Source: Liolophura sinensis (lineage: Eukaryota > Mollusca > Polyplacophora > Chitonida > Chitonidae). Taken from it: a stretch of 64,000 bases of DNA. Positions 29,001-35,000 of this stretch are shown here, in pieces; within the stretch, counting starts at the first letter, position 1; each line of letters starts with the position of its first letter. The stretch spans positions 41,961,385 to 42,025,384 of the forward strand of contig NC_088295.1 in the NCBI RefSeq assembly GCF_032854445.1, written 5' to 3'. The position numbers and the translations under genes are program-made. The notes under the pieces were generated by a model. That model had not been told where the DNA came from. It saw only the letters and a program-made list of their open reading frames with translations, and made no database searches.

Positions 29001-32000
29001 AAACATTGTGACGAGCTTTTAAACTTTGACTTAAATCAGAAATGCCTTTGTGAAATCATACTGTCCTAAGCTAAAATTATCTTATTTTTACTTCCTGTAA
29101 GTTGCAGGCAGCTGGGAAGATTGTCTACATATTACCCTTGTTTCATAAGCTTGGGTAATGATATGTACAGGTAATCCAAGACAGCATCAGAACAAACATA
29201 TTCCAAAGATTTGAGTAAAGTGAAATATATTTTTTGCAAGTAATGATAGGAATGGTTAAACTGAAGTGTGGAAAGCTCAACCAAAATATTATAATATGTG
29301 ATCTCTAGAGAAACCCTAAATTCCGTACTTCATTTTCTGTGGAATAACATTTTCATGTTATTCATTTTCTTCCTTTTCTCTCAGGCCACAAGAAAGATTT
29401 GTGGATTGCTGTTGACCCAGTAACAGGAGACAAGCTGGAGACACTAACCTGGGATGGCTCACAGAAGGTCTGCCCATCATCCAGTGACAACGCCATCTAT
29501 ATTGGCAGGACAGGTAACTCTGTTACTGATGATTAACATATGGGTATAATGGTATACGGGACTTCTGCAATCCAAATCAAAAGTTTTGCCAACATAATCA
29601 GTTTAAATTTTTAGCTCACCTTAGGAAGTAAGGAGAGGTATTGTGAGATGTTGTCAGATGTTGTTGGCGGCGATGTTGGTATTGGTGTCCAGTTTAGTTA
29701 AAATTTTTGGCCAGTCGTAGCATTGCAGTGGCCACCCATAGTACATAGATGATCAATCATCGGTAGCAATTTATCAAAAACCAATCAAGTCCTTTACCTC
29801 ATAGCACAACATTTTGCTTGGCTATTCACAGAGTTGCAATTGCCTCCCATAGTACATGGATTGCCAAATGCACTTTCATTTTGCGTATCAAAGACCTTTG
29901 TAGTTAAGTCATGCACGAACACAGTATCTGTTACCACCACAATGATGTTCAACTCCATAACACACGAAGGCACTGCTTTGCAAGCCCTTACGCATATGAT
30001 AAACAGTCATAGTTGTGACAATATAATAACTTTGGTCTTTCGTGTTGATTTAATGACATTAGCAGTCATTCTACTTTTTTATGGTCACATGACTTAAATA
30101 TTATGCAGTTTTACAAAGTGCTGAATAAGGCGTGCTACTGGTACTCCCTTGTTATTTTTTTTTGAGGAAATTGGATGAGCTAGAGTTATGAAAACTGTTT
30201 ATTTATGATAAAGACAACAAGCTTAAATATAGTAACTAATCACTGAGGGTGCTGGGAAGCATTTCTGAATGTATTTTTTTAATGTTAGTAGTATTGCAGT
30301 GCATATATTCCTGTAATATAACATCATTGAAAAGTGATTGTATTATTTCCAGAGTATACCATTGTCATGTTTGACAGCAAGACAAGGGAAAGAAGGTACA
30401 GTTTTTTTTTTTTTTTGGTTTTTTTTTGTCATAACATTGTTGTTTTGTCATTAGAATCATCAGGGATGATTGTGTCAGATAAATTTCTTGTATATATTGG
30501 AAGTATCCGTATAAATATGCTTGTGTTATGATGGTTTATATAATCACATATATCATTTATATATATGATGTAATATATAATAATAGTTGCTTATTGAAAT
30601 ATATTTTTTTTTTTTTGTTGCAGGTGGAATGCCACTTTCATGGATTACTCATCTCATGTTGCAACAGATGTGGCTGATTACAGTATGTATCAAACACCAA
30701 CACACATTTTAGTTAACTGTTTCAGTAATTATAAATAGAATTTTTATTGTTATTCATCTGGAATTTAATTTATTTCCCATTTTATAAAGAACACTTCATC
30801 CTAAAACCTGCTAACTTATGAATGGTATAATTTTGACATTTAACAAAAGTGGTAATTTTGTTATCATCATTTTTTTGAAATTTTTATTTATTTATTTTAA
30901 TTTATTTATTTTTTGATGTGTTGCACAAAATTGTCAGCTTCTGATTCCTGAACAGTTTAATTGTAAATAAAAGAGAAACTAATATGAACAGACAGAATGT
31001 CTCCACAAATAGTAATGGAATACTGGCATAGTTTGTAATTGTGCTGATCATTCTTACTTCATGAACCAATTTGTTTTCTAGGGTTGAAACATTTTACAGC
31101 CAGTTCTACAGGATTAGCGGTTACTCTTGATACAAAAACTAGTAAGTCATTCTACATAGTCAGAACTATTTTACTTTTCAGATATAGTAATTTTTATATT
31201 GCTACCAGTACTTCCATGTATATGAATTCTGTTAAATGTTAACTTTGAATATTTTAAAGACTATGTTACTTAGACATGAATATTTGAACATGTGAAAATA
31301 CTTTTTAACTGTTCACTGTTTCTTGACAGCACCATAAGCTCCACAGATTCAGACACAGATCTTGTCTCATTGTAGGTGAGGTTATGTGGCACCAGACCTA
31401 TGGCTCCCCTGTGGTAGCGATGTACTCTCTAGGGGCAGACGGACTACAGAAGGTGCCGTTCACCAGCTTTGCCCCTGAGACTCTGGAGCACCTGACCGGT
31501 CAACTCTGCTCCACGGCCTGGAGGCAGCGATTCCTGGAGCATGGTAAAGAGCAGAAATTCTAGTAAGTACAGCAATGGAAAATGGAGATTATTAATACAC
31601 ACAGAGAAACTGCAGTGCATTTACTTAGGCAGATTTTATAGAATGCAAACACAAACTCTCGTGCGTACAGAGATAGAACATTTTCTGAGTACGAAAACGG
31701 AAATTCTATTAATGCACAGGCACAAACTATAGTGCCATTATATGTACATGTATGTACTCAGGCAGACCTTCCAAAATGCAAAGAACAGAATTATACAAGA
31801 ACGCAAATTCTAGTGAGTACAGAGATAGAACATTTTCTGAGTACGAAAATGGAAATTCTATTAATGCACAGGCACAAACTATAATGCCATTATATGTACA
31901 TGTATGTACTCAGGCAGACCTTCCAAAATGCTAGAACAGAATTATACAAGAACGCAAATTCTAGTGAGTACAGAGATAGAACATTTTCTGAGTACGAAAA

Positions 32001-35000
32001 TGGAAATTCTATTAATGCACAGGCAGAAACTATAATTCCATTATATGTACATGTATGTACTCAGGCAGACCTTCCAAAATGCTAGAACAGAATTATACAA
32101 GAACGCAAATTCTAGTGAGTACAGAGATAGAACATTTTCTGAGTACGAAAATGGAAATTCTATTAATGCACAGGCAGAAACTATAATTCCATTATATGTA
32201 CATGTATGTACTCAGGCAGACCTTCCAAAATGCTAGAACAGAATTATACAAGAACGCAAATTCTAGTGAGTACAGAGATAGAACATTTTCTGAGTACGAA
32301 AATTGAAATTCTATTAATGCACAGGCAGAAACTATAATGCCATTATATGTACATGTATGTACTCAGGCAGACCTTCCAAAATGCAAAGAACAGAATTATA
32401 CGAGAACACAGATTCTAGTGCGTACAGAGATAGAACATTTTCTGAGTACGAAAATGGAAATTCTATTAATGCACAGGCAGAAACTATAATTCCATTATAT
32501 GTACATGTATGTACTCAGGCAGACCTTCCATAATGCAAAGAACAGAATTATACGAGAACACAGATTCTAGTGCGTACAGAGATAGAACATTTTCTGAGTA
32601 CGAAAATGGAAATTCTATTAATGCACAGGCAGAAACTATAATGCCATTATATGTACTCAGACAGACCTTCCAAAATGCAAAGAACAGAATTATACGAGAA
32701 CACAGATTCTAGTGAGTACAGAGATAGAACATTTTCTGAGTACGAAAATGGAAATTCTATTAATGCACAGGCAGAAACTATAATTCCATTATATGTACAT
32801 GTATGTACTCAGACAGACCTTCCAAAATGCAAAGAACAGAATTATACAAGAACACAGATTCTAGTGCGTACAGAGATAGAACATTTTCTGAGTACGAAAA
32901 TGGAAATTCTATTAATGCACAGGCAGAAACTATAATGCCATTATATGTACATGTATGTACTCAGGCAGACCTTCCAAAATGCAAAGAACAAAATTATACA
33001 AAATATATGTCTGGTGTCTTCAGCATGATTGATACTTCAGTAGAGGCATGGACTGCCACAAGAGAACGTAAAAAAAACATACATACATACACACTAGATG
33101 TGATGTGTCCAGAAACCGTAATTATGGTTGTTTATCTGTCAGTTAAAAATATTAAAGTCAACATGTGATTAGAAATTTTAGCCTGGACAGATAGAGAGTT
33201 TGGAGTAGTTTTAAAACAGAACTGAATACACCGTTTCATGTAGGGTACTAGTATACCAACTAGTATACCAGATGAAGAATGAATTAAAATAAAATTTTGT
33301 GATATTTATTTCAGCCCCACTCTATATGTTGGAGAGTACAAGTATGGTTTCTACGCCTTGGCCTCATTGGTGGATGAAGAGACAGTCACTGTAGCTGTAC
33401 GTTTACATGGTTATCTCTCTCAGACTACCCTAATCCCTCAACCTTTTCACATATGAAAGAGCAACTTTCAGTGCAATTTATTCATTTTTTTTTAATTTGA
33501 TTTTTGAGACAAAACTACAGGGATTGGAGTGGCTGGTTTCAGGGCTTCACAAAAAGTAGAATTTTATCAGTCAAAACAGAATGGTGCCTTCAAAATATGC
33601 TTGAATAAACAACTTGCAAACATGGGAAAAGCTTGAAGAATTACAGTACTGTATTTCACGTAAAATTTAGCAGTTTTCTAGTGACACATTTTGCTTGATT
33701 CTAATTGATTCATCCACCTCATATAATTATTTAAGAGTTGTTTATGAAGTTTGATTAATTTCTTATCAGAAAACTTAAGTGTTGAGATCAAAAGTTTCCT
33801 TTTTAAAGCCTTTATGTGTTTTTCAAAGTGCATTTTTGCAGGCTAAACTTAAGGGGAAATACAGTATATGTACAATAGCCAGACAGGTAGCCAAATTGCT
33901 GTTAGAAGCGGTAGAATTTATCCAGTTCTCTTTTACATGTTAAATCTGAAATCCCTTGTCACACATTAAACTGACAGATTGGATTTAATTTTGCAAAAAG
34001 ATGAAATGAATTCTGCTGATTGTTTAACTAATGCTTACCGATGTCACAATGAGTATCTAAGAGATATTGGTGCAAAACTAAATGTGGACAAGATAAACCA
34101 GTTTCAGAATGTGCATGCACATGTCGCTGTGTGTGGTCATTTCTGGCTGACTTTTCTGACCACCTATTCATCTAATTGAATTTACTGCCTTCCAGGGCCT
34201 GACCTAGGGGCGTGTTTGCACCAGTCTATAGGATTCGGGGTTGAGAAGTTAGGGATAACATTATCATATTTTTGTGTTCTTTGCATCTATATAGAAAAGT
34301 GTTGAAACTGACAGCCAAATTATTCAGCTAGATTAAACCCTGCTTAAGTGTATCATTAGGTTTTGATTTTTGTGTTATGCAATGTACATATTAGTTGAAT
34401 ATTCTTAAGGTTGTTATAAAACATCAGTGAAATTAATTCTTCCATTGCATATTTCATTTGTGTTGTCAGCCCCGGCAGACAGGCCCCCTGCTCATTGATG
34501 GCCCCAAAACCACTGGTGATAAAACAGTTCAGGAAGAGACAAAACCTCGACAAAGCACCATCATCACAACACCCACAGTCTCTCAGGAGAACAACCTACT
34601 CCTCTTAGGTAACCCACCCCTAAACATCTGTGCAGAAAAGCCCTGTATCACTATTATTGTGTGATCAACTGGGACATAGGTGTATGTATTGAGGTAGTTC
34701 AGCAACAAAGTTACATTTCCAAATGTGCAAAAGTACCAGTAGAAATAAATTACAAGATTGTCCTGGATGTAAACTATGAACTTGCGTTTTGTGTGAGTGG
34801 GTATTTACATGTAGCAAGGATGAAGTCATACAAATGTTGACAGCTTTGTTGTTGTGCATTTGGGTATTTGACATAATTTAAGTTACAATGAAAGACAAAA
34901 AGTTTAATGTACATGTAGTGTCTTCAAATAATTTAACTGAGGGACTTTTGGATGAAATCCGAGAGAAGTTTTGTATCATTGCTTGTGTTAAGAGGTCACT

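What the first reader, a model, noticed from the sequence alone, without database searches (positions are those of the whole stretch)
31376..33004. IRE1 exon 9 splice donor is the first unit of a 151-bp tandem array: an intronic row of decoy donors
Seen: the exon end and intron start AAATTCTA|GTAAGTACAG align with the unit's AAATTCTAGTGAGTACAG. The similarity continues past the junction (AAATGGA..ATTATTAATRCACA.., CTTAGGCAGA, GAATGCAAA, CGTACAGAGATAG). So the array includes, and may have grown from, the authentic 5' splice site. Five units carry GTGAGT and the others GTGCGT at the same place. Reading on from exon 9 into the intron meets TAG at once, so any decoy use would give a premature stop. 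A copy-number-variable row of competing donors in the single stress-sensor gene could tune IRE1 output.
Basis: partly seen in the sequence, partly recalled or inferred. Interest (0 to 1): 0.82.

Follow-up and report, generated by a model that had tools for sequence, protein, structure and literature searches.

The report
Splice-donor minisatellite in mollusc IRE1
In a mollusc's IRE1 gene the end of one exon and the start of its intron have been copied nine times in a row, a known oddity called a "mirage" that also turns up in unrelated genes of the same animal and so is probably harmless repeat growth rather than an IRE1 control device.

Summary
The 151-bp array (TRF 31648-33001, nine units) is preceded by a degenerate tenth unit that holds the last 16 nt of an IRE1 exon, its donor (GT at 31563) and 82 nt of intron; 0 of 2000 shuffles reach its alignment score. 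Five of nine copies carry GTGAGT donors that score like the real one. The unit matched only this array in a search of the 609-Mb genome. The regulatory reading is not supported: a second donor in IRE1 (18-bp unit, 35457) and donors of myosin and dynein genes head such arrays. By inspection of TRF-flagged arrays, 12 of 194 donors and 2 of 194 acceptors are affected. With arrays placed at random, 8 hold a donor in the first unit against 2.25 expected (23 of 20000); acceptors are not enriched. In amphioxus these structures are named "mirages" and reported not to disturb splicing; in human genes, repeats at exon-intron borders can change splicing. Best account: a mirage minisatellite grown from the donor and tolerated because the exon-proximal donor is used. 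RNA use could not be tested. My searches showed no mirage reported in a mollusc.

The parts
31376..31562 (+). IRE1 luminal-domain exon (called g here), ends AAATTCTA
   Evidence: Splices in frame to exon h as ...[16 protein letters not shown]; 83-aa joined peptide matches IRE1 chains 2hz6 and 6shc, E 3.7e-10 and 5.5e-10
31547..31644 (+). Degenerate unit 0: last 16 nt of the exon, authentic donor, 82 nt of intron
   Evidence: Alignment to the unit beyond 2000 shuffles and 2490 background comparisons; 98 nt, 71-77% identical to units 1-9
31563..31568 (+). Authentic donor CTA|GTAAGT
   Evidence: In-frame splice to the exon at 33315
31645..33001 (+). Units 1-9 of the array, 142-154 nt each
   Evidence: TRF, alignment of units
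31813..31818 (+). Donor copy GTGAGT, unit 2
31964..31969 (+). Donor copy GTGAGT, unit 3
32115..32120 (+). Donor copy GTGAGT, unit 4
32266..32271 (+). Donor copy GTGAGT, unit 5
32712..32717 (+). Donor copy GTGAGT, unit 8
31661..31666 (+). Weak copy GTGCGT, unit 1 (others at 32418, 32570, 32864)
33315..33396 (+). Next IRE1 exon (h), acceptor TTTCAG|CCCC
35185..35456 (+). IRE1 exon j, ends just after a hydrophobic stretch; donor AGG|GTGAGT at 35457
35457..35512 (+). Second donor-headed array in IRE1: 18 bp x 3.1, GT at 35457, 35475, 35493; frame stays open
   Evidence: TRF score 63, 78% matches; sequence; donor scores 6.0, 1.3, 2.5 bits

Best explanation
It is a 'mirage' minisatellite. A stretch made of the last 16 nt of an IRE1 exon plus about 135 nt of the following intron was tandemly duplicated, and the duplicate grew into a row of nine units by unequal exchange, while the exon-bound first unit diverged in its intronic part. 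Splicing is expected to go on from the exon-proximal donor, because it gives the normal short exon (187 nt against 285-1488 nt for the copies), so the copies are carried as near-neutral passengers. Shown: array, first unit, register, donor scores, stop codon, no other match in the genome search, same architecture in other genes. Inferred: the direction of growth, the neutral tolerance and the proximal-donor rule.
For: First unit aligned beyond all shuffles. 9 genome matches of the unit, all in this array, so no dispersed element is seen to have supplied it. The exon end lies at an alignable protein position (KFYPTLYVG beside KLTPTLYVG of the PDB chains), so the donor looks old. Unit 0 is 71-77% and unit 1 92-94% identical to the rest, units 2-9 95-100% to each other, as expected for array turnover beside a fixed edge. 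Same structure at other donors: C1 myosin (31 bp x 6), C12 myosin (66 bp x 8, 31 bp x 18, 61 bp x 5), C11 myosin (82 bp x 12.7; a 32-bp array whose source is the donor, 0 of 1000 shuffles), dynein loci L056, L058 and L063 (two arrays). Random-placement test: 8 donor hits against 2.25 expected, 23 of 20000. In print as amphioxus mirages, unit lengths 10-160 bp (PMC3087553 section 16). Intronic minisatellites with copy number differing between individuals are reported in another mollusc, abalone (PMC6905558, passages), with no word there of an exon border.
Against: No RNA data: absence of copy use is assumed from amphioxus and from position, and human border repeats are reported to change splicing (PMC2812944, passages). 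No second haplotype or related species, so growth from the donor is not shown directly. Unit 9, at the far edge, is not more diverged than the interior (96-98%). The enrichment is moderate: in the array-blind sample alone 3 against 0.68 expected (133 of 5000), and acceptors show none (2 against 2.26). A crude duplication score on the donors of 30 myosin loci showed no excess, but that table is unusable for 16 of 30 loci, which lie on the minus strand and were read unturned; of the other 14, 1 reaches 17, against 12% of random places.
Confidence: 0.8

Rival explanations
1. Row of competing donors that lowers IRE1 protein: a fraction of transcripts uses a copy, meets TAG at once and is degraded, and the fraction grows with copy number.
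For: Five copies score like the authentic donor, which is itself only mid-range: of the 18 other donors scored in the gene 10 score higher, 1 equal, 7 lower. Use of any copy gives an immediate stop. Human border repeats can alter splicing.
Against: Same rows at myosin and dynein donors, where nothing suggests tuning. Use of a copy would need exons of 285-1488 nt. Amphioxus mirages reported not to give aberrant mRNA.
Confidence: 0.1
2. A transposable element or satellite landed in the intron and happened to resemble the exon end.
For: Tandem arrays are very common in introns of this genome.
Against: Unit matched only at this locus; match to the exon-proximal stretch far beyond chance and in register through the donor.
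Confidence: 0.04
3. Gene conversion from the array overwrote the intron start, or splicing moved to the first unit of an older array.
For: Unit 0 is degenerate, so its history is unclear.
Against: The exon end aligns without a gross gap to the IRE1 chains of the PDB, so the exon border looks old.
Confidence: 0.06

Closest known systems
Mirage minisatellites of amphioxus (Adh3, globins BflGb6 and BflGb9, troponin C, PGBD5)
   Same: Minisatellite-like tandem duplication across an exon-intron boundary; units of 10-160 bp; many copies keep splice signals; both boundaries can be affected
   Different: Here a mollusc, with donors affected more often than acceptors in the sample; no RNA or haplotype data
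Internal tandem repeats at exon-intron boundaries of human genes in segmental duplications (PMC2812944, passages)
   Same: Minisatellites that sit at exon-intron borders
   Different: There compared between recent paralogues with RNA support, and reported to make new introns and splicing patterns; here no such evidence
Intron gain by tandem duplication of AGGT proto-splice sites (Rogers model, cited; potato RdRp case, start of abstract seen in a listing)
   Same: Tandem duplication that multiplies splice signals
   Different: No new intron is seen here; the copies stay inside an existing intron
Ordinary intronic minisatellites
   Same: Period, copy number and turnover are ordinary
   Different: First unit contains coding sequence and a working donor

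Membership tests
mirage minisatellite | tandem array of minisatellite type | tested here: met
   Period 152 x 9.0, 95% matches
mirage minisatellite | unit spans an exon-intron boundary, the authentic boundary being one unit | tested here: met
   Unit 0 31547-31644 with 16 nt of exon; 0 of 2000 shuffles
mirage minisatellite | many copies keep splice signals | tested here: met
   GT kept in 9 of 9 copies; 5 of 9 within 1 bit of the authentic donor (one search also picked one false tenth site near the array end)
mirage minisatellite | edge units left out of homogenisation | tested here: inconclusive
   True at the exon side (u0 71-77%, u1 92-94%), not at the far side (u9 96-98% to the interior, interior 95-100%)
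mirage minisatellite | copy number differs between haplotypes or cells | not testable with these tools
   One assembly only
mirage minisatellite | regular splicing undisturbed | not testable with these tools
   No RNA data
regulatory row of decoy donors | copies are used in RNA at some level | not testable with these tools
   No RNA data
regulatory row of decoy donors | specific to the regulated gene | tested here: not met
   Same architecture in myosin and dynein genes
transposable element | dispersed copies | tested here: not met
   9 matches, all in this array (the search skips very common words and scores only the best candidates)

The most novel reading that the evidence does not exclude
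In this mollusc, splice donors are preferred places for minisatellites to be born or kept, while acceptors are not, so a few per cent of introns begin with a row of donor copies. The asymmetry would follow from splice-site choice: copies downstream of the real donor are ignored because the exon-proximal one wins, whereas copies upstream of the real acceptor would be met first. Such rows would be a standing, fast-changing source of new splice sites, exon extensions (in frame at 35457) and introns, far outside amphioxus.
Probability: 0.45. Interest if true: 0.7.

Novelty: new member of a known kind. Interest (0 to 1): 0.48.

Why it matters
Mirages were described in amphioxus and thought possibly general in cephalochordates (PMC3087553). 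Finding them repeatedly in a mollusc, with donors over-represented, would make them a broader feature of intron evolution and gives a natural experiment on how the spliceosome picks one donor from a row of near-identical ones. For IRE1 itself it is probably ordinary.

Tried and rejected
Chance similarity of the exon end: rejected on shuffles and background. Dispersed element: no other match. Recursive splice site: the copies read CTAG|TGAGT, not AG|GT, so they cannot rebuild a donor (sequence). Selection against copy donors: one search shows no common trend (C12 myosin 2669: 1 of 17 copies within 1 bit of the authentic donor; C11 myosin 4568: 11 of 12), so it neither supports nor excludes a cost. 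Array at 39868-40057 in IRE1: no likeness to the donor at 39777 by eye, not counted. L060 4415 (starts after the donor), L060 1005 (stops 28 nt before the exon) and L061 3610 were looked at and L065 362 only listed; none counted. First version of the placement test gave 4 donor hits in the dynein-kinesin sample (58 of 5000) and 3 in myosin (125 of 5000), one of the 4 (L061) from a misplaced donor; replaced.

Limits of the counts. The 194 donors are the 193 plus one seen (C11 myosin 4568, whose exon no homology search found; it is read from its open frame and recalled likeness to myosin). Donor and acceptor places outside IRE1 were picked by a script and are not all right. Only arrays flagged by TRF were inspected: 13 of 32 in myosin, 8 of 9 in dynein-kinesin, so 12 and 2 are what I saw, not a full census. 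The five myosin regions were chosen after I had seen tandem repeats, and the C1 region because of one array there; they are not blind. The 20 dynein and kinesin regions were chosen on exon coordinates before their sequence was seen, but by dense exons, so they lean to short introns. In one search the score limit was 60 for IRE1 and 70 elsewhere; with 70 the 18-bp IRE1 array would drop out of the 8. The array in question, C11 myosin 4568 and 9749 and L063 1340 are not among the 8 but are among the 12. For C11 9749, 13 of 438 other places of that region also reach the donor's score (I take these for related arrays nearby, unchecked); for L063 1340, 0 of 61. C10 myosin 12274 is a probable thirteenth (0 of 1000 shuffles, 5 of 332 other places), left out because the unit starts inside the donor. 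Fisher test of 12/194 against 2/194: P 0.011, with the same biases. The donor table is void for the 16 of 30 loci on the minus strand, which I had not turned; only its list of arrays is used. The donor frequency table, the U1 5' tail and the mollusc haemocyanin domain as a mark of molluscs are recalled.

Papers: Canestro et al. 2002 was not held. PMC3087553: passages and section 16. PMC3902484: one passage. PMC2812944, PMC6905558, PMC3862624: passages (the last only cites a minisatellite paper). PMC4974935: listing only.
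Full report
Setting. The window lies at C1:41961385-42025384 of a 609-Mb genome. Eight neighbouring matches to the mollusc haemocyanin beta-sandwich domain on contig C8 mark it as a mollusc; that this domain marks molluscs is recalled. The gene is IRE1: the joined exons read [18 protein letters not shown]... through a hydrophobic stretch to a kinase and C-terminal part (Pfam kinase match on one exon), and the stretch around the finding matches two IRE1 chains of the PDB.

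Observation. TRF finds nine units of about 152 bp at 31648-33001. The stretch 31547-31644, which TRF leaves out, is a tenth, degenerate unit. Against two clean units it scores 77.5, with 54 the best of 2000 dinucleotide shuffles; without exon or donor letters, 31566-31647 still scores 58.5 against 45.5. With a stricter mismatch cost 1 of 2000 shuffles reaches the intronic part. The exon part alone is not significant (99 and 120 of 2000), but it lies in the register set by the intron: 13 of 16. In the search of the whole genome the unit matched only here, 9 of 9.

Donor copies. All nine copies keep GT. Five are GTGAGT and score 3.17 bits against 3.29 for the authentic site, and -7.1 against -7.0 kcal/mol with the U1 tail; no other site in the intron scores above 2.12. 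Four are GTGCGT. Use of any copy would add TAG straight after the exon and make exons of 285-1488 nt.

Same thing elsewhere. In IRE1 itself exon j (35185-35456) is followed by an 18-bp x 3.1 array whose first unit starts at the donor: GTGAGTCTTAACGCTAGT, GTGAGGTTGAATGCTAGT, GTGAGTCTTCATGCTAGT; 18 is a multiple of three and the frame stays open, so copy use would add 6 or 12 residues after a hydrophobic stretch. Of 19 donors of the gene, two (g with 19, j with 17) have a duplication score that 0.8% and 1.1% of random places reach; a third (d, 15, reached by 1.7%) matches a T-rich run.

Thirty myosin loci showed many long tandem arrays near exons (array list only, see Tried and rejected). In five myosin regions (77,805 bases) the units of several arrays contain the donor and the last coding bases of the preceding exon: TTCCAGCTGTTGTTG|GTAAGTCAGATGTATT, six copies; AGTGTGTGATCATCAG|GTATGTG..., 66 bp x 8; TAACTACCTCACACAG|GTGAGTCTGAGCTTG, 31 bp x 18; an 82-bp unit with 53 nt of open reading frame (...RGPKNYHYIKQGGDHK) x 12.7; a 61-bp unit x 5; and a 32-bp array with GGCAACATGTGAGTAT in common with the donor 60 bp before it (the last 0 of 1000 shuffles). 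One 32-bp array of 43 copies ends at an acceptor, TTTGTAG|GTTTGAGCG.

A second sample was chosen on exon coordinates alone: 20 dynein and kinesin regions, 76,470 bases, 107 exons. It holds nine arrays of period 12 or more and score 70 or more; by inspection four derive from donors (L056 4292, L058 1235, L063 1340 and 1900), one from an acceptor (L056 2907) and four from neither. None of the nine is in a kinesin region.

Test. Placing each array at random within its region, the number of arrays with a donor in their first unit is 3 against 0.68 expected in the second sample (133 of 5000), 4 against 1.28 for myosin (192 of 5000), 1 against 0.26 for IRE1 (1219 of 5000), and 8 against 2.25 pooled (23 of 20000). 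Acceptors in the last unit: 2 against 2.26 (13445 of 20000). The array in question is not among the 8. By inspection of flagged arrays the totals are 12 of 194 donors and 2 of 194 acceptors. The myosin regions were not chosen blind (see Tried and rejected).

What it is. Tandem repeats across exon-intron boundaries were named mirages in amphioxus Adh3 and found in globin genes, with unit lengths from 10 to 160 bp, haplotypes of 6 and 3 units, edge units left out of homogenisation, and no disturbance of regular splicing in RT-PCR (PMC3087553, section 16). The PGBD5 paper adds PGBD5 itself and cites troponin C (PMC3902484, one passage). Of four features tested the IRE1 array meets three; the fourth, diverged edge units, holds on the exon side only. 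The name was not found for any mollusc: searches on mirage terms listed the two amphioxus papers and one bird paper, and one on mollusc, minisatellite, intron and splice listed four papers, of which three were looked into; the abalone one reports an intronic 27-bp minisatellite that varies between individuals, without mention in the passages seen of an exon border. A search on IRE1 splicing in molluscs listed three papers with unrelated titles, not opened. Only open-licence papers are held. In human duplicated genes, tandem repeats at exon-intron boundaries are reported to make new splicing patterns (PMC2812944, passages), so such arrays need not always be silent.

How it works. Most likely it does little. 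The first unit is needed; the copies lie downstream, where choice of the exon-proximal donor leaves them unused. That would also explain why donors but not acceptors are enriched: a copied acceptor lies upstream of the real one and would be met first. This last step is inference. The tuning idea is not excluded, since no RNA was at hand, but nothing singles IRE1 out.

Noticed in passing
35457-35512: Second donor-headed array in IRE1, 18-bp unit, frame open, could add 6 or 12 residues beside the hydrophobic stretch
   Followed up: partly
L047/L048 joined, reverse strand (C11 myosin region) 4568-5611: 82-bp unit x 12.7 with 53 nt of open reading frame and a donor; the recurrent differences in that part (TAT/TAC, CAC/CAT) are silent in the frame
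   Followed up: partly
L045/L046 joined (C2 myosin region) 1446-2806: 43 copies of a 32-bp unit ending at a real acceptor, TTTGTAG|GTTTGAGCG
   Followed up: partly
L049/L050 reverse (C12 myosin region) 14881-17830 and L051/L052 reverse (C10 myosin region) 3063-6300: Very long intronic minisatellites, 29 bp x 102 and 26 bp x 125
   Followed up: no
39868-40057: 32-bp x 5.9 array 92 nt after the last base of an IRE1 exon, not visibly derived from its donor
   Followed up: partly
41090-41240 and 42765-42960: Two stretches that look alike, with GTTGGTAGAG, like a tRNA-derived SINE (by eye); a third likeness lies just after the C11 myosin array that ends at 9989
   Followed up: no
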